This document shows positions 3,801-50,008 of a DNA stretch of 64,000 nucleotides, in pieces; the first letter of the stretch is position 1; every line of letters starts with the position of its first letter. Source of the DNA: Phanerodontia chrysosporium (taxonomy: Eukaryota; Basidiomycota; Agaricomycetes; Polyporales; Phanerochaetaceae); NCBI GenBank assembly GCA_001910725.1, contig MJGA01000036.1:124001-188000 (forward strand). Reading direction: 5' to 3'. Below the pieces are notes generated by a model that was given only the letters and a program-made list of their open reading frames with translations, searched no databases and was not told the DNA's origin. The translations under genes and the position numbers were made by a program.

Positions 3801-5030
3801 ATAGCATGATCGTAGGGTCGAGATTCAGGGAACCGTTCAGATGCTTGCTTCTCGAAGACGTGTTGATACTTGGCGAGGTATGACGGAATATCTTTGGGTT
3901 TCATCTGTGCTCCGTCTTCTTGTGCAAATGCCATAGCTGGGTTGATTTTTGCGTTGATCTGTAGATCCCAGATGGTTTGTGCCATGGTAGAACCAATAGG
4001 TATCGTGTAGACCGTGGAATCACCAGGATTGTAGAATGCCACAAAGTTAGCATCCGTGTGTAGTTCTGTGAATTCCGTTGTGCCGATAAAGAACTCCGGG
4101 GGTGCATCAGGGTTTTGTGCGACTCTTACTGCTCAGATAGCGACGTTTAGCAGGTGTTGGAATTTGTCCTGCAATTTTATGCCTGTCGAGCCAAAACCCT
4201 GCTCCCCCCATTTCGTGTCGTCAAGTTTCTCTACTTCCTGTACCTGCGGGAGACGAATCTGCTCGGTAATGAGTTGAGCCATCCGATCCCCTGCCTGGAC
4301 GTGGAACAAGTTGTCTGTGTTGTTGACCAGTATGACTTGAAGTTCTCCGGTATAATTCTGATCTACAACCCCTGCTGCGACATCAACTCCTTTGAGAGCT
4401 AGGCCGCTTTGTGGTGCGATCCGTGTGTAGATTCCTGTCGGAGGTTTAACCTTGATTCCTGTTGGCACTTTTACTCGAGAGCGAGATGGGATGTCACAGT
4501 CAATGGTGGATGACAAGTCGAACCCGGCAGCTTCGCTGCTTCCTTTAGTTGGAAGGTGCCCTCCTACTCGTTCGACGAATATGTGGGTTTGGAGGAGTTC
4601 CTCTTCGTCCTGGCCAGCAACTTGGATTGTTTGTTTCTCTTTGTCTGGTAGTTCTTCGATCGTGGGTTGCGGGACTGAAAAGTTCAAGGTTCCTTTTTTC
4701 CAATCGATATGAGGGTTGTGTTTTCGCAGCCAATCGATTTCTAGGATAGCTTCCTGTTTACCGAGGTGCATGACGAGGAACTGTTCCTTTACGATCTGAG
4801 GTCCGATGGTGACATGGGTTCCGACATAGTTGCAGATGTTCCCAAGTTGATTTGGAGTTCTGTCTACATTGTACATCAGTATTGGCTGTCGAAGTGGTTT
4901 CTCCCGAAGTCCGAGTCGTCAAATAACCATTCGGTCGATGAACTTTCCTTGAGCTCCAGAGTCAATGAGGGTGATGACTTTGTTTCCAGCATTGGTACTC
5001 AATTCAATAATAACGGGGATCTTCATTGAC
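893..5030 (-). pseudogene. G1 pol: protease-dUTPase-RT-RNase H-integrase-chromodomain
   Basis: A polyprotein in pieces. The protease shows LIDSGAQGKFID near 4960, followed by a TGA. The dUTPase spans about 4174-4575. RT begins near 4042 and carries YNNVRIKDGDQWKAAF and the active site YMDDILI (about 3310). RNase H is eroded between 2580 and 3000. The integrase has a zinc-binding N-terminus (CATCQQMK near 2040). In the catalytic core, LSDRDPQF and NGETKR supply the second Asp and the Glu, but the first Asp position reads CNFITHLP, an Asn. A chromodomain (EEYEVEAIL, YLIRWKD, SWEPE) ends at 893. At least five frame breaks make it non-functional. Confidence 0.88.
4174..4575 (-). other. dUTPase domain inside G1 pol
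   Basis: All five motifs of trimeric dUTPases occur in order: AAGFDL (motif 1), RIAPQSGLA (motif 2), GVVDQNYTGE (motif 3, carrying the water-activating Asp), GDRMAQLI (motif 4) and GEQGFGSTG (motif 5, the uridine/phosphate-closing tail). It lies in one frame directly behind the aspartic protease (4133-4876) and ahead of RT. The family hydrolyses dUTP to dUMP and pyrophosphate, limiting uracil incorporation into DNA. In a retroelement it would act during reverse transcription in the particle. The frame is intact across the domain even though the rest of pol is broken. Confidence 0.9.
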
Positions 5031-17982: not shown

Positions 17983-18253
17983 GGTGAAGGGTGTGGTGTG
18001 AGGAGAGAGCGGTAAAAGCGGGGGAAAGTCGAGTGGCAAGGTTGAGTGGCACAGGTGGTCCAAGCTTGAGTGGCCCAGGCTAATCACTTGATCTGGGGCA
18101 CAGATGGCGGTTGATAACGACGTGGTTGGGCTTCACAGATAGCGGGTGGCGTGTAGAATGCGTGAGCGACGTGCTGGAAGCGAGGATAGCGATTGGGGGA
18201 TGTGTGGCCCTTGTGAAGGCGATGTTGGGGATGTTGTGGCCCAGTTAGAGCGC

Positions 18254-24161: not shown

Positions 24162-24166
24162 AATCA

Positions 24167-24766
24167 TGTCACAGTTTTTCGTCTTAACCCTTAGGGTTAG
24201 GGGCAGCAGGTGACAGAAGCGACTACTCCGAACTGTGACATGCAAAAGTGCTGGAGTGACAGCCATAGGCTCGGGGCTGGTCACGTAATACAGCGGTCAC
24301 GTGATGCGCACACGTGCGGTATCCCAGGGTCACATGGTCGAACGTCTAAAAGCAGGCAAGGGTCTGGAAGCGCCGAGACACTCCGGAATGGACTAAAAAG
24401 TCCTGGAGGTCTTTGGACAGGTCCGGACAGTGCTGGAACGTTCTGGAGGTTTCTGGGACATCGTAGGAACATTTAGGAACGTGTAGGAGAATGCAGGAAT
24501 GCCTGTAGGGCACTAGCCAATAGCGTAGTAGGTATTAGATAGCTAGAACCCTGAACACCGGTCCCTGGGGACCTGGTGCACATGTATATAAACCCTGAGG
24601 GCTGGAAGTGCCTCCCCAGCTTCAATCTCATTGCATCTCACCTCTCTAGTCTCTATACCTCGTCTTCAAGCTTGGCTACACCCTTTGTAGTCCAAGTAAA
24701 CCTTTGCCAGTGAGTATTGCTGGTTGGTTTGGTGTATAGACGCTAGGGCAGCGCATTTTTGTGATA
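24167..24766 (+). repeat. 5' LTR of G2
   Basis: 600 bp. TATA box at 24585-24592; predicted transcript start near 24618, 33 nt downstream. A palindrome of telomere-like units, TAACCCTTAGGGTTA, lies at 24185-24199. Confidence 0.95.
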
Positions 24767-27497: not shown

Positions 27498-28059
27498 AGT
27501 CTGTGACATCTGGTCCATTTTTAGATTTCCTTTACCCTCCCGACTCAGTAGAATGTATTAGATCAGTTTTGGAATCGAGAAAAGTCTCTAGTCTACCCTC
27601 TAAATCGAGCTTTATTGTTCCAGTAACTTTGAGTCAGGGTAAGGAAATCAGCGTGCAGACTACCGCGCTGGTTGATTCAGGGGCCTATGCTGTATTCATT
27701 AGCCATCGCTTCGTCAAGAAGCATAAGCTGAAGACGAACCAGCTGGCCAGGGAGATACGCGTTTATAACGCAGATGGCTCCAGGAACAAGTGTGGCAGTA
27801 TTGAGGAGTATGCTTGGCTCGACGTAGCCGTAGGGGACCATGTCTCCAGACAAGCATGCCTCATTACAGATCTGGGTGGAAAGGACATGTTCCTCGGCTT
27901 TAGTTACTTGAAGAAGCATAATCCTGAAATAGATTGGGATAAGGGCGAATGGAAGTACTCCAGATGCCCAGATTCTTGTCGCTTTACCAGCCACAAGGCT
28001 CAAGTAGCGCAAGCAGAACTCGAAGAACCCATGGACGAGGACTTCGAGGAGGATGAAGG

Positions 28060-31000
28060 TAGTGTTGCCACGGCTTGGCTCGGCTTGGCTGCAGCTCGGC
28101 GTTTGATGGCTCTGCCATTTATGGGTGAGCCGGATCAAGCCGAAGCCACGGCTCATTGATTGGCTCTGGCTGACTCTGGCTGGCGAGCGGCTTGAGCCAG
28201 CAGTCCGTCCATATTTAGAAGGTAGTTCACACGGACTTCGCAAAATTGAGAATAAATTCCAAAAACTACTGCAGTGATGCGACAAATGAGGTCAAATCTT
28301 CACAGGTCTCTTGAGCAAGGTCCTCAAGCTCTTCCTCAACATTTTTAGGACTCTGCCCTTCTGTGAAATTGAGGGAATATCCATGTTTGATGCTGAATTT
28401 GAGCATTTGCAGTGCCTCCATCAAAGCTCCGCTGATTCTGTTGTGCCGATCTGATACAGTTAGCTTTCCAGATGAGAAAACACGTTCACAGGGCACAGAG
28501 GAGGCCTGTATGGGTAGAATATCCATGGCCATGGCATAGATAGTTGGAAATTTGCTTTTTGCTGCCTAAATACCGCAAAAATATCATTAAAATTATTAGT
28601 AAAATCGGTAAAAATTGACACACTAGCTAAGTAACTTACCTGCCAATACAACAGAGATACAGGCTCTTGTTCAGTTGGCTCACTAATATATTTCAGCCAC
28701 TCTTGCTCAACTGTGGGCGTTGCTGAGGCTTTTGGCTTGTGTTTGAACAAAATATTTCGAGCCTGCTGTGCGCTTGTCTGTTGTATGTTGGTGGCCTGAT
28801 TGATATCTTCTGGGACCATATGTTCTCTGTACTTCTTCATCTGTACAAATGGCATTTATTAATGGACTAGATCATTTTGCAGAATTGCATGAGATATACC
28901 TCTCTGATAAATGACTCTTTTGCCTCCCTTTGCTCTGTCGAAGTTGTGCATGCTTTATGCCATTCAAACTTGATCTGAGGATTGATGACTATATATTGTC
29001 AATATATGCGGTGCATTCAAATTTAGAATACGTACTTGTAGCCAAGGTATAAACGTCAATGCTGCGGTTACGCTCACGATATTCATCAAGCTTGTCTAAC
29101 CCCTGCTGAATAATAGATGCAGCCTGTGGATATTCTGTCTGCTGGTCAACCCAGAGTTTCTTCATTCCCTCAAATGCAGGAAGCACATTCGCGAGGGTAG
29201 GTGTTGACTCAGAGGAAAGAACTTCTTGAAAGAGATTTGGTACCTGTTAATCAAATATTAACCAGCTATCTAATTATGGAAACATCGGAAAATTAATATA
29301 TACTTTGAGTATAGCACAGAATATCTCTAAGGTATGCCATTCTGCAGCCTCCAGAGAGAACTTGCGAAGGTCTGCAAACTCATCTCCATCAAGAAATTTC
29401 TCAATGGCCTGAAAACAGATATAAGAAATCATCAAAAATGCGAATGAAAAACATACCTCGCGAAGTACAAGAGCTCGCTCAATCATGAAGTATGTTGAGG
29501 ACCAGCGAGTCTCAACATCTCTCAGTAGCTGAAGGATCTTCTGCTGCATAGAATGAAGAATATTTGTAAAGTGTTGACGACGAAGTGCAGAGGCTCGAAT
29601 CTAATAAAGTATAAAATTGTCAGTAAATGTCAAGAAAATATGAAGAGGAAAGAGGAAGACCTACACCCCAGATAAGGGAGCGAAGAGTTGTGATTGGGTC
29701 CCGTTTGATAGCATCCAGAAAGTTATCTGATGTTATACCACTGTCAGGCTCAAATGCCGGTGCTGACTCCTTCAAATAATCCAGCTTGGTCATTGCACCA
29801 AGCACCGTTTGACAAGCCAAGTTGACAATATGGGGGAAACACCTGGTATATTTATTAGAATTTACTGACATTTTTATAATAAAATATGCGCACCGGATTT
29901 GTCGCTGAGTCTTGTCAAATGGTATTTTGCGAGCTACCAAAGACTTCTCCAAGGCTGCCATGAAAGTGTCATTGTTACTGGCATTATCCATAGTAATCCA
30001 GCCAATCTATCACAATATATATACATATTAGTGGATTTTTACATAATTAAAGTAAAAACAAATACTGCACCTTGTATGCAATTTGCACCCGATCAACGAT
30101 GTACAGAAAGGCCGCTGCAAGATGTTCACCTGTATGCCTAGTCAGCACATGGTGAAAGCCAATAAGGTCAATACGAAGTTTGAGCTGTGGATTTTGTGGA
30201 TCATCCATAACCATCTGCAACCAATGTGCGGTAACAGCCATATATGGTGTTACAAAGGGGTCTGTCCACAAATCCATAGTGAACGTAATCTTGCCAACAG
30301 CGCACTATAAAGCAAGTTTTAGTACTACATTATAAAACAATTTTATTTCCACATACCTGCATTTCTGCAGTGAGGTCTTTGAGATATTGGCTGAAAACTT
30401 TGGAGACCCGGTTACGAATAGTTGTACAGCCTGGAATGTCCCGTTCACGTAGTTCAACACGCAGCAGCATGAAGATCTTGCGTAATCGGGGGCTTTCAAC
30501 AACGCTTAATGGCTTTAACATGTATTAAAAATTAGCAATAGTAATAATAATAATAATTATAGAAATAATGCGCACCTGATCTTCAGCTATGATCCACTCT
30601 ACAATCATATCAACAAATAGCTCATTGCTGAACGGTGGGTGTTCTTCATTAGCTGTCTGACTGGTACCTTCACCACGCTGCTTTTGATGCCACTCTGCAA
30701 CACGTGTAACGGCACTCTTTGCCTTGATTTGAATCCCTGCTTTGTCACAAGTAGGCACCACATAATCAATGTGATTGGCAAGAAAGTGCCTCCTAGGATT
30801 GTCTGTGCCAGCTGTCGTCCACGCTGCGATAGCATGCCCAGAATTTTGTGCACGTATTGCTCTGCAATTATTTTCTCATAAATAAATCAATAGATATTTC
30901 AAATAAAATGCGCACAAGTAGAATTTGCACAGCTTCCGCCCTGTAAGCTTTTCCTGCTCCAAAAATGACCAAATGTCTTTAGCTTTGTTCCCCCGCTTGT

Positions 31001-31852
31001 TCCCTGCAGGGTCATGGGACTTCTGACGCTGGCCAGCAATCGGAAGAGTGGGCAAACCCTTTGGCTGTCGAGATGGAGTAGAGGAGGTGGTGACAGCAGC
31101 AGGGTGATTTGATGTTCGTGCCTGAGGGGCCAAACTATCGTCTGTGTCATCACTAGCTGAAACATCCATGTCGAAGATTTCGTGCTCTTCTTCTTCAACA
31201 TCAGGCAGTATCTGCTCTATATTCTCTCTATCATCTAATAAGCAAATTTATTTCTACCATTAATAGGTTACATACCTTGAAGCCTCTTTAGATACCTGAG
31301 GTGCAGGCTCAGGTAAGGGCTCAGGTGCACGCTGATATACCATGCGACCTCACTTCGGTGTTGAAAAACGCACAATTGACTCCTCCCCTGCCAGATCCTC
31401 TACACTAGCCTTCTTCCTTGGGCCTCTCCTCTTCTTAGGTGAGCCCTGAGCTGCCTCTCCTGCAGCAGGATCTGACAGGACAAGGTAATCAGTACAGCAT
31501 CAGAAGAAATGTTAAAAAGCGCACCATCTAGCTTCCACTGAGTCTTCATAGCTCCAGTCTCATATGTTACATGCTTTGGAGTGACCCTACGCCTCTTTGA
31601 AGTCTTCAGAGGTGTGCCAGGGGCATCGTGTTTGCCTGCTGTGGTGTTGTTCTGTTCTTTCGCCATGGTGGTCGCCAGTTAACATGGTGGTTGCCTAATT
31701 AGGATGGCGATACCGGCGGCGAGCCATAGCCAAGCCGCGTTGTGCTGAGCCCAGCCGCAAATAGGCCATGAGCCAATCAGCGGCTTGGCTCGGCGACCAC
31801 GTGACTCAGCTCTCTGGCTGAGCAGCTATGGAGCCGTGCCGTGGCAACACTA
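28060..31852 (-). mobile_element. hAT DNA transposon nested in G2
   Basis: 3793 bp with terminal inverted repeats TAGTGTTGCCACGGC at both ends. It is flanked by 8-bp direct repeats GATGAAGG (28052-28059) and GATGAAGA (31853-31860), one transition apart. Eight-base duplications are the hAT hallmark. Removing the transposon and one repeat restores the G2 pol frame across the site. It encodes a multi-intron transposase on the minus strand. Subterminal GGCTTGGCTCGG-type motifs recur at both ends, possible transposase-binding sites. Confidence 0.95.
28266..31666 (-). pseudogene. hAT transposase, about ten exons
   Basis: Start ATG 31666 (MAKEQNNTTAGKHDAPGTP). A BED-like zinc-finger region (KAKDIWSFLEQ, then RRHFLANH) spans exons at about 31170-30760. 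The RNase H-like core carries TMDLWTDP (first Asp, near 30270), TMDNASNND (second Asp, near 29990) and, after an insertion domain, the EW of LEAAEWHTLEIF (near 29345). The C-terminal hATC dimerisation motif (ASSVPCERVFSSGKL) ends with the stop at 28266. Introns are short, and at least four share the donor GTGCGC (near 31524, 30915, 30573, 29892). A TGA near 31350 in the acidic N-terminal part probably inactivates this copy; the catalytic core looks open throughout. Confidence 0.8.
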
Positions 31853-34800
31853 GATGAAGAGGAGCCTTGGCTTCAGTGGGTCGATCCTTCCACCCCAAAT
31901 GGCCGCGTTTTGGCAATGACTTGCCGGAAGATCGCAGCGATGTGCAGTATTCGTTCACTGGAGGGAATCAAGGGTTGGGAGCAGCTTGTCCCTACACAGT
32001 ATCAGGACTATGGGGACATGTTTTCAAAGCGTGCAAGCGAACGGTTACCTGTACAAAAGCCTTACGACCACGCTGTCGAATTTATCAACGAAGCTACCCT
32101 ATCTCGACCAGCTCGCAATTACTCGCTGTCACCAGAAGAGAGGAATTCTCTGGACGAGTGGATTCAGGAGAATCTCGCCAAGGGATACATCAGACCAAGT
32201 AAATCCCCGCTGGCAGCACCAGTCTTTTTCATGAAGAAGAAGGACAGTTCATTGCGCTTGGTGCAAGACTACAGAAAGCTAAACGAAGTCGTCAAGAAGG
32301 ATTGCTTTCCTATACCCAAGATCTCAGACCTTATAGATCGACTATCTAAGGCCAGTATATACACCAAGATTGACCTTAGATGGGGGTATAACAACGTCAG
32401 AATTAAGGAAGGAGACGAGTGGAAGCTGGCCTTCATCACATCTTTCGGTTTATATGAACCTACAGTGATGTTCTTCAGCCTCAGCAATGCACCAGCAACC
32501 TTTCAGCGCATGATGAACCATATTCTCGATGACCTAATTCGAGAAGGGCATGTCATGGTCTACCTAGACGACATTCTCATCTTGACGAATGACTTGGACC
32601 ACCATCGGCAATTAGTTCGCGAGATATTGCAGTGGTTACGCGACAACGACCTGTTTGCTAAGCCAGAAAAGTGCTTCTTCGAGACGGATAGCATTGAATA
32701 CCTCGGAACAATCATCAGCAAGGGGTCGGTTCAGATGGATCCATCGAAGGTAGATGGTGTTTTATCTTGGCCCATACCCAAAAGGATCAAAGATGTTTAG
32801 GCTTTCTTGGCTTTTGCCAACTTCTACCGACGGTTTATTCGAGACTTTGGCAAGATTGTTCGCCCATTGTCAAAGCTTACCCGCAAAGGCAAAGAGTGGG
32901 AATGGGGGCCTGAGCAGCAGGATGCCTTCGATACGCTCAAGAGAGCGTTCACTACTGCGCCTATTCTCAAGATTCCGGACGATGAGCACCCCTTTAGGCT
33001 CGAATGCGATTCGTCAGACTTTGCTATGGGGGCTCTACTTGAGCAACTGGGTGAGAATGGTCTTTGGCACCCTGTCGCATTTTACTCCAAGGCGCTAGGC
33101 GTACACGAGCGCAACTACGAGATATACGACAAGGAGATGCTAGCCATCATCCGCGCGCTGAAGGAATGGTGCCACCACTTGGAGGGACACCCTCTACCGT
33201 TCAAAATATGGTCAGATCACCAGAATTTGACCTATTTCCGCAAGGCACAAGACTTGACGCGACGTCAAGCATGTTGGAGTCTTTTCCTCACACATTTCCA
33301 CTTCAAATTGGAGCACAAGCCTGGAAAGACGATGAAGCGGGCTGATCCAATGTCCAGGAGGCCAGATCATGAATTGGGGGTGGATTGCGACAATCATGAA
33401 AAAGTCCTTTTGAAGCCAGAATATTTCGCGATTCGAGCCATGCAACCAACCCATTCATCAATAGTGGACGATAGCAAACTGCTAGAAAGGATCAGAAAAG
33501 CCCTGCTGGACGACAAAGTCACCAAGTCGTACAAAGACCTGATGTTGAAAGGACCAAGAGAGTTCGGGAAGGACTTAGCGGAATGACACCTCAAGGATGG
33601 GCTACTATTACACCAAGGCAAGGTGTATGTGCCCAAGGACGACAAGATTAGGGCAGACCTACTCAAGTTACACCATGACTTCTCTGGGGCTGGACACCCT
33701 GGACGAAGGAAGACGTTGGAGTTGCTGTCGTGCAACTACTGGTGGCTAGGAATGTCAGTTTCTGTCAAGAAGTACGTTGCAGGTTGCGAAGTTTGCCAGT
33801 CGCATAAAAACGTCAACCAGAAGTCTGCTGGCCTGCTACAACCGAACGAGGTTCCGTTGGAACCCTGGGAGATAATCTCATGTGATATGATCACGGACTT
33901 GCCTGAGTCGGACGGTTATAACGCTATCTTCATAGTCGTTTGCCGCTTAACAAAGCGAGCACATTTTCTCCCCATTACCAAGGAGTTTTCAGCCAAGGAT
34001 CTGGGAAATTTGCTCTACGAGCGTGTTTGGCCTTTGCATGGCCTACCCAAATAGATCATTTCGGACAGAGGAACACAGTTCACTGCGAAACTCTTCCAGG
34101 AATGGTGCAGACTCTTGGGAATCAAGTCAGCGATGACTACAGCGTTTTACCCTCAGGCAGACGTTCAGACTGAGCGAGTTAATCAGTTATTGGAGCAGTA
34201 TCTGCGCTGCTACACAAGCTTCAGGCAGGACGACTGGGCATACCTTTTGCCCTTTGCCGAGTTTGCGTACAACAACCAGGCGCATGAAAGCATGAAGAAC
34301 CCGCCATTCTTCGTCGAATATAGTCTTCATCCACGCATGTTCCCAGAGCAAGACCGTGTTACAAGGTTGTCAGAACTGGATGACTGGACGAAGCTCAGAC
34401 AGGAGGCCCAAGATCAGGCAAAGGCTGTGCTCGTGCTGGCTGCAGAGCGAATGAAGTGGTACTACGACCAGGGTAAATCAGAACCCTTGTTCAAGGTCAG
34501 AGACCATATTTGGCTTGACGCAAAGGATCTGAACCTTCGGGTTCCCTCCAAGAAACTGGCACCAAAGCGAGTAGGCCCTTACGAGATCGTAGAGCAACTG
34601 GGACCGGTCACCTTCAAGCTGAAGTTACCAGCCCATGTGAAGATTCACCCGGTCTTCCACGCAAGCAAGCTCACGAAGCACGTCGAGGATGAGGTTGCCA
34701 ATCGCACGTGCAAACCCCTACCACCCATTCGTGTGGGTGATGACAAGGAGTACGAGGTCGAGCAGATCGTAGATGCACAGCCAGACTCTAAAGGCCGTGT

Positions 34801-35032
34801 CATGTACCGAGTACAGTGGAGAGGCTACGACGAGCATAGCGACACATGGGAATACTTGCCCAATCTCAAGCACGCTATGGCGAAGGTCAAACAATTCCAC
34901 AAGAAATACCCAGATACGCCAAAGGCAATTTCCCTTCTGCAATGCCACCACGACAAGGAGGATGAGTTTTTCGTGCACGAACTCATGCTACTCCAATCTT
35001 AGGGAGCAGACGACCAGTTCGAGGTCGAGCTC

Positions 35033-35431
35033 ATGAACAAGGATGCAAAACTCCCCTCACGTGACTCGCCAGAAAGTGCAGGGTTGGATCTTTTCATCAC
35101 GGAAGACCTTACGCTCAAGCCCCATAATCGCAAGCTAGCACCAACTGGCCTTCGAATGTGTACTCCACCGGGTACCTACGCTCGAGTTGTACCACGGAGT
35201 GGCCTCAGCCTCAGAAGCATTGACATAGGAGCAGGCGTTATTGACCGAGATTATCGAGGAGAGCTCAAAATTCTACTCATCAACAACTCGCCCGACACCT
35301 TTACATTCCACAAGGGTGATCGTGTCACTCAACACGTGCTCGAAAGAATCTCCTACGCCAAACCAACTCTGGTTTCTCGCCTCGACTCAACCATTCGCAG
35401 CAGTGATGGTTTTGGCTCCACTGGTATTTAG
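35033..35431 (+). other. dUTPase domain at the C-terminal end of G2 pol
   Basis: Motif 1 SAGLDLF, motif 2 ARVVPRSGLSL, motif 3 GAGVIDRDYRGE (catalytic Asp present), motif 4 KGDRVTQHVL, motif 5 SSDGFGSTGI. It is in frame with pol but separated from the chromodomain by a TAG at 35000-35002 and about 10 codons, and ends 35 bp before the 3' LTR. The TAG is either decay (CAG to TAG) or a read-through stop. It could also be started at ATG 35033 as a separate protein. It is the last coding sequence of the element, unlike in G1. Confidence 0.9.
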
Positions 35432-35466: not shown

Positions 35467-36066
35467 TGTCACAGTTTTTCGTCTTAACCCTTAGGGTTAG
35501 GGGCAGCAGGTGACAGAAGCAACTACTCCGAACTATGACATGCAGAAGCGCTGGAGTGACAGCCCTAAGCTCGGGGCTGGTCACGTAATACAGCGGTCAC
35601 GTGATGCGCACACGTGTGGTATCCCAGGGTCACATGGTCGAACGTCTAAAAGCAGGCAAGGGTCCGGAAGTGCCAAGACACTCCGGAATGGACTAGAAAG
35701 TCCTGGAGGTCTTTGGACAGGTCCGAACAGTGTTGGAACGTTTTGGAGGTTTCTGGAACATCGTAGGAACATTTAGGAACGTGTAGGAGAATGTAGGAAT
35801 GCCTGTAGGGCACTAGCCAATAGCATAATAGGTATTAGATAGCTAGGACCCTGAACACCGGTCCCTGGGGACCTGGTGCACATGTATATAAACCCTGAGG
35901 GCTGGGGGTGCCTCCCCAGCTTCAATCTCATCACATCTCACCTCTCTAATCTCGATACCTCGTCTTCAAGCTTGGCTACACCTTTTGTAGTTCAAGTAAA
36001 TCTTTGTCAGTGAGTATTGCTGGTTGGTTTGGTGTATAGGCGCTAGGGCAGTGCATTTTTGTGATA
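35467..36066 (+). repeat. 3' LTR of G2
   Basis: 600 bp, same termini as 24167-24766, followed by the target duplication AATCA (36067-36071). Confidence 0.95.
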
Positions 36067-36071
36067 AATCA

Positions 36072-37572: not shown

Positions 37573-40500
37573 TTAGATGCAGCGCCCCTCCTCCCAGTCG
37601 AGATCGGCCTTAGCGCGATCGGAGGCAGAAAGGAGAAAGACATTGACTTTGGTGATGAACGGGCGAAAAGAGGCGGCGAGGGCTTCAAAGGCGGTGGCAG
37701 CGAGCTTGTGGGGCGCTTCCGGATTTTCGCGATGGAACTTGTTGACCAGGGTCTTGGCGTGCTTGAGGTTGTCTGCCTTTTCCCACGTGTTGCCGGCTTG
37801 ACCGTAGCCTTTCCAGCGGACCTTGTACTGCAGTTGGCGGCGGTATATGCGGCTGTCGAGGATCTTCTCGACGACGTATTCTTCTTCACCGGCAACCTTG
37901 ACAGGTTTGGGAGGCAGGGGCTTCTTGACACCCTGATCGTGCCATGGGCTGAGGCAGTTGACATGGAAAACTGGGTGGATTTTCAGCCAGCTCGGGAACT
38001 CAAGCCGATAGTCCAGATCGCCGATCTTCTCCAGAACCTTAAACGGACCCAGCTGGCGGGGGCCGAGCTTGGGCGAAGGCTGATCGATGCTGAGGTCCTT
38101 CGTGCTGAGCCAAACCTGATCACCGATCTTAAAGGAGTGGGTGCGTTTCTTTGCAGCCTCGTATTCCTCTTTCATTCGGGCTTTGGTTAGGCGCAGGGCA
38201 GCTTCGGCCTCTTTGCGAATGTTAGCCATGCAGTATAGGTGCTCATCGAGGGTGGGAACCTTGGTATGTTTGCCGGCCGGAATCGTGAAGTCCGGTGTGT
38301 AGCCGTAAACAATCTCGAAGGGTGTGCACTCGGTAGCACTAGACACGTGCGAGTTTAGGGTAAACTTGGCCATCGGAAGCCAATCGACCCAGTCATCTTG
38401 GCGCTGGGAGACGAAGAGACGCAGGAGTTTCTCGACTTCCTGGTTCTTGCGCTCGACCTTGCCGTTGCCTTCAGGGTGATACGCCATGGTGAGACCGGTA
38501 GCAATGCCAAGGCGCTTGTACAGTGCTTGCATGTACTGAGCTGCAAACTGGGGTCCACGATCAGAGAAGATCTTGCGTGGGAGGCCGTGAAGGCAGAAAA
38601 TATCCATGTAGTGGACGTTGCCCATGCCAGCAGCGGTGATCGTCGAGTCGACCGGCACAAGGTGGCACTGATCCAAGTAATGGTCCACGTAGACTGCGAT
38701 CGAGTCCTTCTTGGTCTTGGCGTCGTGTGGAAGCTGCGTGATGAGATCCACGCCGATGTGTTCCGAGGGCCCTGAAGGGACGTCGTGGGGTTGTAGAGTG
38801 GCCTTTGAATGCAGGGCGGACTTGTACCGTTGACACTGGTCGCAGCCGAGCACGTAGCGGCTAACGTCGGCGGAGATGTGTGGCCACCAATAGTACTGAG
38901 AGACCAATTCGAGGGTGGTGTGCTTTCCGGGGTGCCCGGCAGTCAGCGCGTCGTGGCAAAACTTAATGACGTCATTGCGTAGCGCGGCACCATTCGGAAC
39001 GTAAACCTTTCCATGATAGTAGAGAAGGCTGTTGTTTTCTTCCCATTCGAGGACGCCATTGTGCAGCTTGCGGGGCCCCTTGGTCCGGAGAGTCTGCAGG
39101 GCGTCTGCGACTTCCTTTTCCTTTTCGGAGCAGTCGCGAATGCGCTTTTCGAGGGGGGAAGGGTTTGCAAAAGCTGCCGTGGCGGATGTCTTAAACAGCT
39201 CTGACTTCAGTACTATCTGCGAGCGGTTGTCCTCTTCATCAGAGACATGCAGCAAGGAAGGCCGGAAGAGCGGGTCAGCGAGGAGATGTGTCTTGCCAGA
39301 ACGGTGGATGATGCGGAAGTCGTACTCGGCGAGGTAGGAGGCCCAGCAAGCTTGTCACCGCGTGAGATTCTGCGCAGTCTTCCAAAACTGGAGATTCTGA
39401 TGATCGGTCCAGATCCCAAAAGGCTCCAGGAGACCTTCGAGGAACTGGCACCAGTCCTTGAGAGCTTCAATGATTGCAAGCATCTCGCGGTCCCAGCTCT
39501 CGTAATTCCGCTCGGCGGGGCTCATGGTCTGCGAGCGATACGCGATTGGATGCCAGAGACCATCTTCAGGGTTGCGCTGAACTATTACCCCACTGGTGGC
39601 GTAGCCAGAAGTATCGGTTTTGACGTGAGTTGCCCGATCAATACTCCACATGGCGAGCACCGGCTGAGTTGTGAAGGCGCGCTTGAGCGTTTCGAAGGCT
39701 TCTGCCTGTGCGGGACCTCAATTAAACAGAGTATCCTTCTTCGTCAGATCGTGCAGCGGGCGGCAGATCTTTGAGAAGTTCTTGATGAAGCGGTGATAGA
39801 AATTGGCAAACCCAACGAAGCCTTGTACGTCTTTGAGATTCTTCGGGGTCGGCCACTCGGCTACAGCCTTAACCTTGCCGGGGTCCATGCCAACCTGTCA
39901 TTCGCTGATGAGGAGCCCAAGATACTCGATCTCTGAGCGCTCGAACTTGTACTTCTCGGGCCGAAGGTACAGATCATATTTGGCGAGGTATGCCAGGACC
40001 TCGTGAACAATCTTCCGATGTGAAGCGAGATCATTCGACCAGATGAGGATGTCGTCGAGATAGACTGCGACCTTGCTTTCGGTGATGAGGTCGGCGAAGA
40101 TATGGTTTATGAGGGCCTGGAACGTGACAGGGCTGTTGCACAGACCGAAATACATGACTCGGGGTTCGAAGAGACCGTGGTTGGTGACAAAGGTGGTTTT
40201 CCACTCGTCACCTTCCTTAATCCGGACATTGTTGTAGCCCCAACGGACATCGAACTTGGTGAAGATCTTAGCGCCTTGGAGCTTTCCGATGATGTCGGAG
40301 GCGAGCGGAAGGGGGTAGCGATTCTTCACGGTGATGTCGTTGAGCTTGCGGTAATCCTGGATGAACCGAAGCTTGCCGTCCTTTTTCTTGATGAAGAAGA
40401 CAGGGGAAGCGATCAGAGACTTGCTGGGGATGATATAGCCTTTGGCGAGTGCGTCGTCAATGAACCGCTGTAGTTCTTCATTCTCGATCGGGGACATGGG

Positions 40501-41300
40501 ATAAACCTTCGATTTGATCGAGGTCGGGGCGTCCGGAACGAGATCTATCACGTGGTCCCAGGGCTGATGCTTCGGAAGGCGGTGCAATTCCTCTTCGGAG
40601 AACATCTTCTTATGTCGGTGGTACTCCTTGGGGACCAACTCTTCAAACATCTTGGCGTACTTCTCGCGATTGGCTTCAACAGCGATCGCTTGCGAATAAG
40701 TGTAGCCGGCGAGGATCCAGACTTCGTCCTTGGCGTCCTCGACAATGCCTGCTCGAAGCCATTCTCGACGTTCGGAGCGATTGGCGTCAATCTGATGGAT
40801 ACTGAAAACCGGGGTGTCCTCAGCTCTGCCGCGGAGCTGAAACTGGACATCTCCCGTTTCCCAGTCGATGTTCGGATTCCATTTCTTGAGCCACGGAAGT
40901 CCGAGGATGACGTCCTCCGGACCGATGTTCGTGACAAGAAATTCCTCCTTAAACGTGTAAGAACCCACAGTAAGCTGAAGTCTGGTGCGACGCGTGATAG
41001 ACCCTGCTTCATTCTTAGTTCCGTCGATGTTGTACAGTGTGATCTCCTTCTTGAGCGGTACTGTGAGGATCTTGTGTTGCTTATGGAAATCCTCGTGGAT
41101 GAACAGCGAAGTTGCACCGGAGTCAATCATTGCGGGTGTGCGAATAGTTTTATTGAGTCCGGTGAGCTTTACAGGTACACGATAATGATTGGAAAAAAAA
41201 TCTAGCACTGATATTGTACATGAGCGGATAGTATCTGAAATGTTCTGTGGTTCTAGCGACAGTGCCGGAGTTGAATCCGAGCTTGACGAAACGGGGACCG
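37573..41300 (-). pseudogene. G3-A pol
   Basis: Protease and RT lie in one frame (39898-41208; MIDSGATSLFIHEDF, YLDDILIWS). RNase H is broken between 39255 and 39898 by stops and shifts. Integrase and chromodomain lie in a second long frame (37573-39255; SDRGPQF, EGNGKVERKN, EEYVVEKILDSR). All domains of the intact copy B pol can be followed, so this is a recently killed copy, not a different element. Confidence 0.9.
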
Positions 41301-41348
41301 ACGATGCGGCGTCACTCCAGCCCCTTAAGCAAAACCCCCGAGCTGCTT

Positions 41349-42575
41349 TTATATCAGAGCCAGCTGATCACGGAGGGCAGCGAGTGCGGCGGCTTGATCG
41401 TCAGATGAGCTGCCAGAAGACGAGGAGGCCGGAGACGAGGAGTCCTGTGACGAGATTTCCGAAGACGAGGCGCAGACGGCGGCGGTAGCGGGGGCAGTTC
41501 TCGGCTTGCCTTCGAGGCGAGTGCAACAGACGTGGGACCAGTGACCCTTCTTGCTGCAGTGGTTGCAGACCGAGTTGTGGTGAACGGGGTCCGTGGACTT
41601 GTGGGACTTTGAGCCACAGACCTTGCAGTGGTCCTTCATGACGGTGTCAAACTGGCGCTTGAGATCCGTGCCGGTGAGACCCTTAAACAGCTTGTCAATG
41701 TTCGCGGCATTGATGTCCATCGCGTTCGGGTCGCGGAAGGCGCGCGTCGATGAGCTAGCCGGAGTTGAGGACATTTTGCCCTGCTACGCCAAGAGGTCTT
41801 GCGAAAGCTTGTCCTTCGACCGGTCGATGGCGAAACTAGCGTTCTTGAGCTCGTTGTACGTCTCGGGGCCTTTGCTGGTGCTGGGGTTGACCATGTACGA
41901 GATTCGCTCGAGATAGTCCTTGTTGAACTTCGTCCGTAGCTGGGCCGCCAGATCCTCCGGGGTGAGCTTCGTGCAACCGGCGAGGGCTTGGAACTCCACA
42001 AAGAACTCCGCGAACCGACGATTGCCTTATGTGCACGTCTGCAGCTTACTGAGGGCCTCGGCCTTCTCGTCAACAGGCTCGAACCGGTTCTTGAATGCTT
42101 CCCAAAACGTAGCGCAAGAGCCGTCAAATATCTGAACACCGTCTGCCGCCTGCTCGATGTATTGCCGTGCCCATTCAGCCGCTTCGTCCTGCATGAAGGA
42201 GAGAGCGCCGATAATCCACTTCTGGCCGTCTACCAAGATCTTGCCGGAGTCCGGGTCCCGCTGGAGGTTACCGTTGACATCGCGTTTGCCGAATTTCTCT
42301 GGCTGTCCATTGGCGTAGATGCGGTAGGCGGCGCGGAAGAGACGGGCCGTGTCTGAACCTTTCCCTTTGCACGGGACAGACTTCTCGACGAAGAGCAGTT
42401 CCTTATTCACATTGACCGTGGCGTTGACCGTTGTGTGAGTGTTACCGATGGCCTGGGCCAGAGTGTTGACCGTGTTGGTGAGCTGCGTCATTGCCTGGGC
42501 CATTTGCAGGAGCGCAGCAGAAACGGGGTCAGAAGGCGCCGGACCGGGCGGCGCTCCTCCGGGAGTGCTGGACAT
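41349..42575 (-). pseudogene. G3-A gag
   Basis: Starts MSSTPGGAPPGP as in copy B. Nonsense codons, read against copy B, replace Gln near 42027, 41781 and 41349; the last two are CAG to TAG and CAA to TAA. The two zinc-binding clusters are kept (CKVCGSKSH and CNHCSKKGHWSHVC). The gag-end slippery site GGGTTTT is conserved near 41333. Confidence 0.88.
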
Positions 42576-44071: not shown

Positions 44072-45518
44072 CAGTGGCCGCCAAAAATAACGCAACAAGA
44101 CTAGGCGCCGACTGCCTTTTGGCATGCATCGATCTGTATATATTCATAAATACATGTATATACCCAATTAAATTCATATAGCATTCATGTATACAACAGA
44201 GTGTGCTTAAATATTCTTGTGATTATTGAAGGGCTCACTGTGACAAAAACTGTCTCACAAGATAAGTGACCAATCAAAACCCCCGAAGCCATCAGTGATG
44301 TGCACCACCCATCCTGCTCGATGCGCGTCGTCATTCCTCCACCACACCCTTCTCTCTTCACAAAAAATTTCACAAATATTCTTACACATATTTTGTCATA
44401 AACTACACGTATGACAGTCCTCACCCCTACCAAACGTGCCCGCATACGGGACTTTCTTGCTGCTGGACTCATACAAACCGGAATTGCCAACAAACTTGGT
44501 GTACACTGCTCACAAATCTCCCGCATCATCTCCAAGCTTCGTGAAGACAACAACAACTACAATGTCAACAAGAAGCCAGGTCGCCCACGTGTTTTTGATG
44601 ACCGTGATCTCCGCCGTGCGAGTCGTGCAATCACAAGCGGCAAGTGCGCAGACACTACCGAGGTTCGACACACTCTATTCCCCCACGTCTCAGTCCGAAC
44701 TGTCCAACGTGAACTCTCAAGCATTGGTCTGAAGGGACACATTCGTCGTACCAAGCCCCTTCTTCATCCTATTCACATAATGAAGCGGCGAATGTGGGAG
44801 AAGACACATCGCAGGATGGAGATGGAGAAGTGGAAGACAGTTATCTTTTCTGATGAGTCCAAGTACAATCTTTTTGGCTCAGATGGAAAGCAATACTGTC
44901 AGAGGAGGGTAGGAGAGGAGTTTCTACCACGGAATCTCAAAAAGGTGGTGAAATACGGAGGAGGAAGTATAATGGTATGGGGATGTATAAGCTGGAAGGG
45001 CGTTGGGAGGCTGCATCGAGTGGATAGAAATATAACGGCAGCCTCATACTGCAAGATTCTCGAAGAGTCCTACCTTGGCTCTCTAGAAGACCTTGGTTAC
45101 CCACGCAAAGCAGTCATATTCCAGCAGGACAATGACCCGAAACACACTGCAAAGTGTACAAGGTGATGGTTTAAAGACAATAACATTGAATTGCTCCCCT
45201 GGCCACCCTCTTCCCCTGACATGAACATCATAGAGCATGTCTGGTGGCACCTGGAAACTCTCGTCAACCGCCGCAACCCCTGTTCACGCAATCTAGATGA
45301 ATTGTGGTGTGCATTGCAGGAGGAGTGGGAAGCACTTAATATACAATTTATTCGCAGGCTGTACAGGTCTATTCCACGTCGTTTGCAGGCCCTTAGGGAT
45401 GGCAAGGGCCAGTACACTAAGTACTAATTTTTTGGACATTTTCTCTTCACTTTGTGCTGTGTTCTCGAGAAGTTTTGTCGAGGTTGTCATGTCTTGTCCC
45501 AATTAGGCAAGAGGGGTT
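44072..45518 (+). mobile_element. Tc1/mariner transposon in the G3-A LTR (right end missing)
   Basis: The left end CAGTGGCCGCCAAAAATAAC follows a TA target inside the G3-A LTR, as expected for Tc1 elements, which insert at TA. The matching inverted repeat is not visible before the next LTR starts at 45519, so the right end is lost. It codes for a DD34E transposase. Confidence 0.88.
44411..45427 (+). pseudogene. Tc1-family transposase with one in-frame TGA
   Basis: About 338 codons from ATG 44411. The N-terminal helix-turn-helix pair reads KRARIRDFLAAGLIQTGIAN then the GRPRVFDDRD (GRPR) hook; a second paired-type motif is SVRTVQRELSSIG. The catalytic triad is complete: FSDESKYNLF, QQDNDPKHTA and DMNIIEHVWW, with exactly 34 residues between the second Asp and the Glu. 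A TGA at 45164-45166, between the last two motifs, is the only visible defect; the frame continues to TAA at 45427. With the right terminal repeat gone, this copy could not move itself anyway. Confidence 0.9.
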
Positions 45519-46250: not shown

Positions 46251-49200
46251 TCAGATGTGGCGCCCCTCCTCCCAGTCGAGATCGGCCTTAGCGCGATCGG
46301 AGGCAGGAAGGAGAGAGACGTCGACTTCGGTGACGAACGGGCGAAAAGAGGCGGCAAGGGCTTCGAAGGCAGTGGCAGCGAGCTTGCGGGGCGCTTCCGG
46401 ATTTTCGCGATGGAATTTGTTGACCAGGGCCTTGGCGTGCTTGAGGTTGTCTGCTTTTTCCCACGTGTCGCCGGCTTGGCCGTAGCCTTTCCAGCGGACC
46501 TTGTACTGCAGTTGGCGGCGGTATATGCGGCTGTCGAGGATCTTCTCGACGACGTATTCTTCTTCGCCGGCAACCTTGACAGGTTTGGGAGGCAGAGGCT
46601 TCTCGACGCCCTGATCGTGCCATGGGCTGAGGCGGTTGACATGGAAAACCGGGTGGATTTTCAGCCAGCTCGGGAGCTCGAGCCGATAGTCCAGATCGCC
46701 GATCTTTTCCAGAACCTTAAACGGACCCAGCTGGCGGGGGCCGAGCTTGGGCGAGGGCTGATCGATGCTGAGGTCCTTCGTGCTGAGCCAAACCTGATCG
46801 CCGACTTTGAAGGAGTGGGCGCGTTTCTTCGCGGCCTCGTATTCTTCTTTCATGCGGGCTTTGGTTAGGCGCAGGGCAGCTTCGGCCTCTTTGCGAACGT
46901 GAGCCATGCGGTCTAGGCGCTCATCGAGAGCGGGAACCTTGGTGTGTTTGCCAGCCGGGATCGTGAAGTCCGGTGTATAGCCGTAAACAATCTCGAAGGG
47001 CGTGCGCTCGGTAGCGCTAGACACGTGCGAGTTCAGGGTGAACTCGGCCATCGGGAGCCAATCGACCCAGTCGTCTTGGCGCTGGGAGACGAAGAGACGC
47101 AGGAGTTTCTCGACTTCCTGGTTCTTGCGCTCGACCTTGCCGTTGCCTTCGGGGTGATATGCCGTGGTGAGACCGGTAGCGATGCCGAGGCGCTTGTACA
47201 GCGCTCGCATGTACTGGGCTACAAACTGGGGTCCACGATCGGAGAAGATCTTGCGTGGGAGGCCGTGGAGGCGGAAGATGTCCGTGTAGTGGACGTCGCC
47301 CATGCCGGCAGCGGTGATCGTCGAGTCGACCGGCACAAGGTGGCACTGATCCGAATAGTGGTCCACGTAGACCGCGATCGAGTCCTTCTTGGTCTTGGCG
47401 TCGCGTGGGAGTTGCGTGATGAGATCCACGCCGACGTGTTCCCAAGGCCCTGAAGGGACGTCGTGGGGCTGTAGGGTGGCTTTCGGATGCGGGGCGGACT
47501 TGTACCGTTGACATTGATCACAGCCGAGTACGTAGCGGCTAACATCGGCGGAGATGCGCGGCCACCAATAGTACCGAGAGACCAACTCAAGGGTGGTGTG
47601 TTTCCCAGGGTGTCCGGCAGTCGGCGCGTCGTGGCAAGACTTGATGACGTCGTTGCGCAGCGCGGCACTGTTCGGGACATAGACTTTCCCATGGTAGTAC
47701 AGAAGGCCGTTGTCTTCTTCCCATTCGAGGACGCCGTTGCGCAGCTTGCGGGGCCCCTTGGTCCGGAGAGTCTGCAGGGCGTCTGCGACTTCCTTTTCCT
47801 TTTCGGAGCAGTCGCGAATGCGCTTCTCGAGGGGGGAGGGGTTTGCGAAGGCTGCCGTGGCAGCTATCTTAAACAGCTCTGGCTTCAACACTACCTGCGA
47901 GCGATTGTCTTCTTCATCGGAGACATGCAGCGAGGAGGGCCGGGAGAGCGGATCCGCGAGGAGATGGGTCTTGCCGGGGCGGTGGATGATGCGGAAGTCA
48001 TACTCGGCGAGGTAGGAGGCCCACCGGGCTTGTCGCCGCGTGAGATTCTGCGCAGTCTTCCAGTACTGGAGATTCTGATGATCGGTCCAGATCTCAAAAG
48101 GCTCCGGGAGACCTTCGAGGAACTGGCGCCAATCCTTGAGAGCTTCGATGATTGCAAGCATCTCACGGTCCCAGATCTCGTAGTTCCGCTCGGCGGGGCT
48201 CATGGTCTGCGAGCGATACGCGATTGGATGCCAGAGTCCATCTTCGGGGTTGCGTTGGGCTATGACTCCTCCGGTGGCGTAACCAGAAGCATCGGTCTCG
48301 ACGCGAGTTGGCCGATCAATGCTCCACATGGCGAGCACGGGCTGAGTCGTGAAAGCGCGCTTGAGCGTCTCGAAGGCTTCTGCCTGTGCGGGACCCCAAT
48401 TAAACGGAGTGTCCTTCTTCGTCAGATCGTGCAGCGGGCGGCAGATCTTTGAGAAGTCTTTGATGAAACGGCGATAGAAGTTGGCGAACCCGACGAAGCC
48501 TCGTACGTCTTTGAGGTTCTTCGGGGTCGGCCATTCGGCTACAGCCTTAACCTTGCCGGGGTCCATGCCAACCTGTCCTTCGCTGATGAGGAGCCCAAGA
48601 TACTCGATCTCTGAGCGCTCGAACTCGCACTTCTCGGGCCGAAGATACAGATCGTATTTGGCGAGGCGTGCCAAGACTTCATGAACAATCTTCCGATGCG
48701 AAGCGAGATCGTTCGACCAGATGAGAATGTCGTCGAGGTAAACTGCGACCTTGCTCTCAGCGATGAGGTCGGCAAAGATGTGGTTCATGAGGGCCTGGAA
48801 CGTGGCAGGGCTGTTGCACAGACCGAAGTACATAACTCGGGGTTCAAAGAGACCGCGGTTGGTGACGAAGGCGGCTTTCCACTCGTCACCTTCCTTAATC
48901 CGGACGTTGTTGTAGCCCCAACGGACGTCGAACTTGGTGAAGATCTTGGCACCCTGGAGCTTCCCGATGATATCGGAGGCGAGCGGAAGGGGGTAGCGAT
49001 TCTTCACGGTGATGTCGTTGAGCTTGCGGTAATCCTGGATGAACCGGAGCTTGCCGTCCTTTTTCTTGATGAAGAAGACAGGGGAAGCGATCGGAGACTT
49101 GCTGGGGACGATATAGCCCTTGGCGAGTGCGTCGTCGATGAACCGCTGTAGTTCTTCATTCTCGATCGGGGACATGGGATAAACCTTCGATTTGATCGAG

Positions 49201-50008
49201 GCCGGGGCGTCCGGAACGAGATCTATCGCGTGATCCCAGGGCTGATGCTTCGGAAGGCGGTGCGATTCCTCTTCAGAGAACACCTTCTTGTGTCGGTGGT
49301 ACTCCTTGGGGACCAGTTCTTCGAACGTCTTGGCGTACTTCTCGCGATTGGCTTCGACAGCGATCGCTTGCGAGTAAGTGTAGCCGGCGAGGATCCAGAC
49401 TTCGTCCTTGGCGTCCTCAACAATGCCTGCTCGAAGCCATTCACGGCGCTCGGAGCGGTTGGCATCAATCTGGTGGATACCGAAAACCGGGGTGTCCTCA
49501 GCTCCGCCGCGGAGCTGAAACTGGACATCTCCCGTTTCCCAGTCGATGTTCGGATTCCATTTCTTGAGCCACGGAAGTCCGAGGATGACGTCCTCCGGAC
49601 CGATGTTCGTGACAAGAAACTCCTCCTTAAACGTATAAGAACCCACAGTGAGCTGGAGTCTGGCACGGCGTGTGATAGATCCTGCTTCATTCTTGGTTCC
49701 GTCGATGTTGTACAGTGTGATTTCCTTTTTGAGTGGTACCGTGAGGATCTTGTGTTGTTTACAGAAATCCTCGTGGATGAACAGCGAAGTCGCACCGGAG
49801 TCAATCATTGCAGGCGTGCGAATAGTTTTATTGAGTCCGGTGAGCTTTACAGGTACACGATAGTGATTCGAAAAAGGATCTAGCACTGATATTGTACATG
49901 AGCGGATGGTATCTGACAAGTCCTGTGGTTCTAGTGATGGCGCCGGAGTTGAATCCGGGCTTGACGAGACGGGGACCGACGATGCGGCGTCACTCCGGCC
50001 CCTTAAGC
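46251..50008 (-). CDS. G3-B pol polyprotein
   Basis: Open for over 1240 codons in the -1 frame relative to gag. No ATG stands at its head, which fits expression by frameshifting at 50009-50015. Approximate residues counted from 49919: protease MIDSGATSLFIHEDF (about 35-50); RT with GYNNVRIKEGDEWKAAF and YLDDILIWS (about 394); RNase H DASGYATGG, EIWDREMLAI and WTDHQNLQYW; integrase zinc domain HDAPTAGHPGKHT...CDQCQ (about 760-800); catalytic core VDLITQLP (829), SDRGPQF (890) and NGKVERKN (925); chromodomain EEYVVEKILDSR, YKVRWKGYGQ, DTWEKADN (about 1120-1165). The chromodomain should bind modified histones and steer integration. All catalytic residues I can check are present. Confidence 0.95.

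What the first reader, a model, noticed from the sequence alone, without database searches (positions are those of the whole stretch)
35033..35431. Second, independently placed dUTPase: C-terminal end of pol in G2
G2 also carries a five-motif dUTPase, but behind the chromodomain as the last coding unit before the 3' LTR. Two Gypsy families in one window with the enzyme at two different positions suggest either two captures or a domain shuffle. This parallels the two locations seen in retroviruses. Possible role: lowering uracil load during reverse transcription in non-dividing hyphal cells.
Basis: partly seen in the sequence, partly recalled or inferred. Interest (0 to 1): 0.87.

Follow-up and report, generated by a model that had tools for sequence, protein, structure and literature searches.

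The report
C-terminal dUTPase of fungal Gypsy retrotransposon
A common fungal jumping gene carries, at the end of its replication polyprotein, an enzyme type that keeps uracil out of DNA; selection seems to have kept it, but such an arrangement in fungal jumping genes was already in print.

Summary
Window 35003-35431 encodes a complete dUTPase (PF00692, E 7.7e-36) right after the chromodomain of a Ty3/Gypsy element (G2), 35 bases before its 3' LTR. This copy is dead: a premature stop cuts the dUTPase off from pol. Its family (A) is large: 89 of 150 scored dUTPase hits, 33 of these 89 inside an uninterrupted 1385-aa frame.
Variants shared by four or more copies are mostly silent (9 replacement or stop: 29 silent, p = 3e-7), while single-copy variants look neutral: the domain was kept by selection.
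G1's dUTPase, between protease and RT, is only distantly related. Descent of either enzyme from the seven sampled cellular fungal dUTPases is rejected (AU p = 0.010, 0.007). One old element-borne lineage that changed place fits best, but separate captures from unsampled donors are not excluded.
dUTPase at both positions in one fungus, with the idea of independent acquisition, was published in 2010 for Postia placenta (PMC2864245, passages). New member of a known kind; the selection test and family census are what is added.

The parts
35003..35431 (+). dUTPase domain of G2 (family A), last coding unit of pol, with its own stop codon
   Evidence: PF00692 E 7.7e-36; five motif regions
35000..35002 (+). 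premature in-frame stop between chromodomain and dUTPase in this copy; at least 33 of 89 family hits are open through this point
34115..34999 (+). C-terminal part of integrase with SH3_Tf2-1 and chromodomain
33623..34054 (+). N-terminal part of integrase, ends at a premature stop
   Evidence: gapless alignment to an open copy over 3579 bases
32807..33586 (+). RNase H region, ends at a premature stop
31841..32800 (+). reverse transcriptase
   Evidence: PF00078 E 9e-32
28160..31840 (.). 3681 bases between the protease and RT frames without any recognised pol domain; probably a nested insertion of unknown kind
   Evidence: two ORFs in it have no Pfam match
27503..28159 (+). aspartic protease region
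   Evidence: PF13975, PF08284
25919..27497 (+). gag region in two frames, zinc knuckle in the second
   Evidence: zf-CCHC E 0.00023 over its cut-off
24167..24766 (+). 5' LTR
35467..36066 (+). 3' LTR
   Evidence: 31 mismatches in 600, 29 of them transitions
24162..24166 (+). target site duplication AATCA, left copy
36067..36071 (+). target site duplication AATCA, right copy
4133..4876 (-). G1 (family C1): end of protease followed by dUTPase (domain about 4181-4558), upstream of RT
   Evidence: PF00692 E 4.3e-35; open relatives PR-dUTPase-RT
46251..49919 (-). comparison element (family D): 1222-aa pol ORF with chromodomain and no dUTPase

Best explanation
G2 is a decayed copy of a large chromovirus (Ty3/Gypsy) family whose pol polyprotein ends in a trimeric-type dUTPase (order PR-RT-RNaseH-IN-chromodomain-dUTPase). 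Selection has kept the enzyme during the family's spread. Inferred mechanism: the domain is made as part of pol, packed into virus-like particles with RT, and hydrolyses dUTP to dUMP and pyrophosphate near the site of cDNA synthesis, so that less uracil is built into the element's DNA. At the C-terminus its motif-5 arm is free without any cleavage. The different place in G1 most likely reflects relocation of an old element-borne dUTPase lineage, and not two recent captures of the host gene. Shown: domain, order, copy number, selection signal, rejection of descent from the sampled cellular fungal enzymes. Inferred: activity, packaging, benefit, direction and mechanism of relocation.
For: Domain and order. 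Fold: the predicted dUTPase part matches solved dUTPases (Foldseek prob 1.00; vaccinia dUTPase TM by target 0.92), with a low-confidence stretch between chromodomain and dUTPase. Family: 89 of 150 scored dUTPase hits are family A (85% or more), 33 of these 89 in a 1385-aa open frame. Selection: 84 full copies against one reference copy; variants in 4 or more copies 9 replacement or stop: 29 silent against 284:142 possible transitions, OR 0.16, p 2.9e-7; variants in 2-3 copies 26:19, OR 0.68, p 0.25; singletons 41:23, OR 0.89, p 0.67; outside CpG, shared in 4 or more 2:15. Origin: A+host rejected p 0.0104, C+host p 0.0071; A+B+C+E held together has log-likelihood 11.25 higher than the free tree; branch 82/92 in a 31-row tree. 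Backbone: A and B sister in RT (98/97), A with B+P0245 in IN (95/95).
Against: 141 columns resolve little: A+B, B+E, A+C and A+B+E are each not rejected either, free searches missed better trees, and the bootstrap of the 97-row tree had not settled. Eight AU tests were run without correction, and the C+E group was named after seeing a tree. P0248 shares C's RT and IN clades and slot, yet its dUTPase falls outside A+B+C+E, which speaks against simple inheritance in the slot. The fungus's own cellular dUTPase gene was not found (150 of 188 candidates scored, none that I could recognise as cellular; not every row was looked at), so the closest possible donor is missing. The seven 'host' rows are three ascomycete, three tremellomycete and one unnamed protein (groups recalled). 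No activity, expression or particle data. The neutral expectation treats all transitions alike, and shared variants could in part be recurrent mutation.
Confidence: 0.68

Rival explanations
1. Two independent old captures from different, unsampled donors: families A/B at the C-terminus, family C between protease and RT.
For: Place follows backbone: A, B and P0245 are C-terminal and form one IN clade; C1, C2 and P0248 are PR-RT. In the RT tree P0248 and a group K (P0146, P0183, P0189, P0218) join C (97/96), yet K's enzyme lies with cellular fungal and plant dUTPases (96/97 in 31 rows; the narrower clade K+host only 65/19 in 47 rows), which suggests that capture or replacement in that slot can happen. 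P0248's enzyme is also apart. PMC2864245 proposed independent sources (passages).
Against: A+B+C+E as one clade has the higher likelihood and a moderate branch (82/92); C's enzyme groups with C-terminal P0245/P0006 (98/87).
Confidence: 0.35
2. The domain is a hitchhiker without function, carried passively at the end of pol.
For: The window copy is dead; 8 of the 84 compared copies have a stop in the domain.
Against: Variants shared by four or more copies are strongly depleted in replacements while singletons are neutral; the motifs are kept in relatives P0001-P0005 at 69-77% identity, P0005 being cut before motif 5.
Confidence: 0.05
3. The stop before the dUTPase is a programmed signal that makes a small amount of read-through pol-dUTPase.
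For: The stop lies between two domains in the same frame.
Against: 33 of 89 family hits are open through this point in a 1385-aa frame; the window copy carries three other stops and shows C-to-T / G-to-A decay, 131 of 180 differences, 70 of them at CpG.
Confidence: 0.01
4. Recent simple transfer of one dUTPase between G1 and G2.
For: Both lie in one genome.
Against: 43-45% identity of G1's enzyme to family-A copies and different flanking domains.
Confidence: 0.01

Closest known systems
PosPlaTy3-4 of Postia placenta (PMC2864245, 2010; passages seen)
   Same: Gypsy element with dUTPase at the carboxyl-terminus of Pol
   Different: Its sequence is not held here, so identity with family A could not be tested
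PosPlaTy3-5 of Postia placenta (same passages)
   Same: dUTPase between PR and RT, as in G1
   Different: Sequence not compared
dUTPase-containing Metaviridae of Phanerochaete chrysosporium (Novikova and Blinov 2008; known here only as cited in PMC2864245)
   Same: dUTPase in basidiomycete Metaviridae; P0242, named a Phanerochaete sordida polyprotein, has the C-type dUTPase at 68% and PR-dUTPase-RT order
   Different: Original paper not seen
Bdelloid rotifer Juno, Vesta and TelKA elements (PMC5408684; passages)
   Same: dUTPase between PR and RT
   Different: No chromodomain; other lineages
Retroviral dUTPases (PMC4531489; passages)
   Same: dUTPase as a domain of the gag-pol products, at more than one place
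   Different: Places are gag-pro (betaretroviruses) and RNase H-IN (non-primate lentiviruses), neither of which is used by G1 or G2

Membership tests
Ty3/Gypsy chromovirus (Metaviridae) | LTRs with short target site duplication | tested here: met
   600-bp LTRs, AATCA duplication
Ty3/Gypsy chromovirus (Metaviridae) | PR-RT-RNaseH-IN order | tested here: met
   window pieces; RT-RNaseH-IN-chromodomain order in an open copy, L044, and PR first in relative P0125
Ty3/Gypsy chromovirus (Metaviridae) | chromodomain at the integrase C-terminus | tested here: met
   PF00385 E 1.9e-12
Ty3/Gypsy chromovirus (Metaviridae) | gag with zinc knuckle | tested here: met
   zf-CCHC 21.5 bits, cut-off 20.8; the gag body itself has no firm Pfam match
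Ty3/Gypsy chromovirus (Metaviridae) | primer-binding site and polypurine tract | not tested
   not examined
Trimeric dUTPase (PF00692) | full-length domain with five motifs | tested here: met
Trimeric dUTPase (PF00692) | dUTPase fold | tested here: met
   (model of an open family copy, L044)
Trimeric dUTPase (PF00692) | homotrimer and dUTP hydrolysis | not testable with these tools
   needs protein
Fungal cellular dUTPase captured by the element | groups with cellular fungal dUTPases | tested here: not met
   AU p 0.0104 for family A, 0.0071 for family C, against seven cellular rows; own-genome DUT not found
PosPlaTy3-4-like family | sequence kinship with PosPlaTy3-4 | not testable with these tools
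   sequence not held

The most novel reading that the evidence does not exclude
One element-borne dUTPase lineage, separate from the fungal cellular gene, has moved between at least three slots of pol (after the chromodomain in A/B/E, between PR and RT in C, between RNase H and IN in P0243) in closely related chromoviruses, while in one sister group (K) the PR-RT slot was refilled with a cellular-type enzyme. The slot would then be a poor marker of descent, and what is kept is having the enzyme somewhere in pol.
Probability: 0.45. Interest if true: 0.55.

Novelty: new member of a known kind. Interest (0 to 1): 0.38.

Why it matters
A population-style test inside one genome indicates that an accessory dUTPase of a fungal retrotransposon is maintained by selection. 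That is a hint that uracil in cDNA limits these elements. A genome with 89 or more copies of family A, plus B and C families and a dUTPase-free family D, gives a natural comparison for when an element needs its own dUTPase. The bare finding (dUTPase at two places in one basidiomycete) is not new.

Tried and rejected
Programmed stop before the dUTPase: rejected, other copies are open there.

Two short dUTPase-only loci (L041, L042) looked like a non-autonomous element that kept only the dUTPase. They are truncated family-B ends abutting a repeat found at about 40 places (40 of 83 candidates scored), several near contig ends; of 12 loci of that repeat (L048-L059) only two (L048, which is the L042 locus, and L059) have a B fragment beside it.

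Host dUTPase gene: sought with a cellular fungal protein; no row among the 150 scored of 188 candidates could be recognised as cellular, and not every row was looked at. Not found, not shown absent.

Discordance between IN and dUTPase trees (P0245 next to B in IN, next to C in dUTPase) looked like proof of exchange, but B+E held together is not rejected, so I do not claim it.

First selection count on 29 copies was biased, because these copies had been chosen by similarity of their dUTPase; I replaced it by all 84 full copies other than the reference. Four partial hits of the 89 were left out.

The sequence nested in G2 read like a hAT transposon to me, but its two longest listed ORFs have no Pfam match, so I do not name it.

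Full report
What is there. The window lies in a 39.0-Mb, 145-contig genome; element kinship (P0242, named Phanerochaete sordida) suggests a polypore-like basidiomycete, but the species was not determined. Window 35003-35431 encodes a full dUTPase domain (PF00692, E 7.7e-36, profile positions 2-129 of 129). It follows integrase, SH3_Tf2-1 and a chromodomain (34115-34999). Its stop codon is 35 bases from the 3' LTR. The element has 600-bp LTRs at 24167-24766 and 35467-36066 differing at 31 sites (29 transitions) and is flanked by the 5-bp duplication AATCA. Its gag region carries a zinc knuckle.

The window copy is dead. Its pol frame has stops at 32798, 33584, 34052 and 35000, and 3681 bases without a recognised pol domain lie between the protease and RT frames. 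Against an open relative (L044) it differs at 180 of 3579 sites, 131 of them C-to-T or G-to-A, 70 of these at CpG. This is the signature of deamination of methylated DNA (inference). The last stop separates chromodomain from dUTPase in this copy; 33 of 89 family hits run through in one 1385-aa frame.

Census. A search with the G2 dUTPase scored 150 of 194 candidates. By my reading of the rows these are 89 of family A (85-100% identity, C-terminal), 34 of family B (45-51%) and 27 of families C1/C2. Counts are lower bounds. The chromodomain was found just upstream of the dUTPase in 38 of 38 loci examined, 30 of A (one of them the window's) and 8 of B. With G1's piece as query, C1 gives 10 rows at 81-100% and C2 23 rows at 57-58%; one open copy of each read here has PR-dUTPase-RT (L043, L039). 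Family D, in the window at 46251-49919, has none. Of 65 family-A RT hits (83% identity or more) 56 have a family-A dUTPase at, or within about 0.7 kb of, the expected distance. Of the other 9, four run off contig ends, two are truncated or interrupted before it (L114, L115), three were not examined (C80:1351913, C53:86233, C90:74777).

Selection. All 84 full-length family-A dUTPases other than the reference copy L044 were compared with it (the window's copy is among the 84; four partial hits dropped). Variants found in four or more copies, which have most likely passed through transposition, are 9 replacement or stop and 29 silent; possible transitions are 284 and 142 (odds ratio 0.16, p 2.9e-7). 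Variants in 2-3 copies: 26 and 19 (odds ratio 0.68, p 0.25). Variants in a single copy, mostly later decay, are 41 and 23 (odds ratio 0.89, p 0.67). Outside CpG the ones in four or more copies are 2 and 15. I take this as purifying selection on the domain while elements are active. The expectation ignores mutation bias other than through the CpG check.

Structure. A model of chromodomain plus dUTPase of the open copy L044 (mean pLDDT 76; dUTPase core mostly above 80) has the dUTPase fold: 269 PDB matches with E at most 0.001, best Entamoeba histolytica dUTPase, vaccinia dUTPase TM-score 0.92 by target length. A stretch of low confidence lies between the two domains, and the last residues (motif 5) are also of low confidence. 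In known dUTPases this arm completes the active site of a neighbouring subunit (recalled). At the end of pol it is free without cleavage, a possible reason why this slot is tolerated (inference).

Positions elsewhere. Two searches for dUTPase-bearing polyproteins and one for the short domain gave relatives. Among the rows gathered before, 52 carried other element domains: 20 with the dUTPase before RT (a few without a visible PR), 12 C-terminal, 10 between RNase H and IN, 6 before PR, 4 other (in-genome copies and one duplicate included). Family A's closest relative found elsewhere is P0125 (1346 aa, same order, dUTPase 89-90% identical).

Phylogeny. RT, 40 rows: A and B are sisters (98/97); C joins P0248 and K (97/96). 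IN plus chromodomain, 27 rows: A with B+P0245 (95/95); C1, C2 and P0243 (100/100), then P0248 (100/100). dUTPase, 97 rows: A with P0001-P0005 and P0125 is one clade (100/99); C with P0242, P0243, P0245, P0006 and P0017 another (100/87); the bootstrap had not settled. In 47 rows the latter, without P0017, is 98/87. Clade tests: A+host p 0.0104, C+host p 0.0071, rejected; A+B+C+E not rejected and 11.25 log units better than the free tree; C+K p 0.108; K+host already a branch, but at 65/19. A+B, B+E, A+C and A+B+E are also not rejected. In 31 rows A+B+C+E is one side of a branch with 82/92; K's dUTPases fall with cellular fungal and plant ones, 96/97; P0248's falls outside A+B+C+E although its RT and IN lie with C. 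I read this as one old element-borne lineage at several slots, with other enzymes in K and P0248. With 141 columns and no DUT gene from this fungus, two old captures remain possible.

Literature. PMC2864245 (passages) reports dUTPase in Postia placenta elements at the amino-terminus of Pol, at its carboxyl-terminus and between PR and RT, cites earlier cases in Phanerochaete and Tuber, suggests independent acquisition, and repeats the idea of replication in non-dividing cells. PMC5408684 (passages) reports PR-RT dUTPases in rotifers. PMC2774666 (passages) mentions similarity of betaretroviral and fungal chromoviral dUTPases. PMC4531489 (passages) describes the two retroviral places. I saw no test of selection on a retrotransposon dUTPase in the result lists of the paper searches, but none was aimed at it.

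Verdict. Observation confirmed; interpretation partly supported; the arrangement is known, the family is a new member, and the selection evidence is the useful addition.

Noticed in passing
P0144, P0147, P0148, P0150, P0151, P0153-P0156, P0166, P0176, P0182: In Kwoniella, Cryptococcus, Papiliotrema and Naematelia a dUTPase of cellular type is annotated together with coronin/WD40 domains in one protein; in the six of these whose coordinates were printed (P0144, P0148, P0150, P0154, P0156, P0166) it is the C-terminal part. It recurs across many genomes, so perhaps a real fusion and not a merged gene model.
   Followed up: partly
window 28160-31840: 3681 bases nested in G2 between protease and RT with no pol domain; the ORF 29620-29991 (-) read like a hAT transposase to me, but Pfam gives no match.
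   Followed up: partly
L042:272-880 and about 40 further places in G000: A repeat of about 600 bp rich in palindromes of the type CGATCGCTGCTCGAGCAGCGATCGG, several copies near contig ends and several as inverted pairs about 3.3 kb apart; perhaps subtelomeric.
   Followed up: partly
P0146, P0183, P0189, P0218: Gypsy polyproteins with the dUTPase before RT whose enzyme resembles cellular fungal ones (P0146: 67-72% identity to them), while their RT is close to family C.
   Followed up: partly
P0131, P0185, P0202, P0203, P0250, P0264 and others with PF07727: Ty1/Copia-type polyproteins with dUTPase, several of about 1600 aa with the domain near residues 590-800.
   Followed up: no
window 44411-45166: ORF that reads like a Tc1/mariner transposase; Pfam gives HTH_Tnp_Tc3_2 at E 4.9e-06, below its cut-off.
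   Followed up: partly
window 13576-18087: Single 1503-aa open frame (-) with Copia gag, integrase and RVT_2 domains, no dUTPase match.
   Followed up: partly
window 37573-42575 and 46251-51253: Two copies of family D (chromodomain Gypsy without dUTPase); by the ORF list the second has open gag and pol frames, the first is broken.
   Followed up: no
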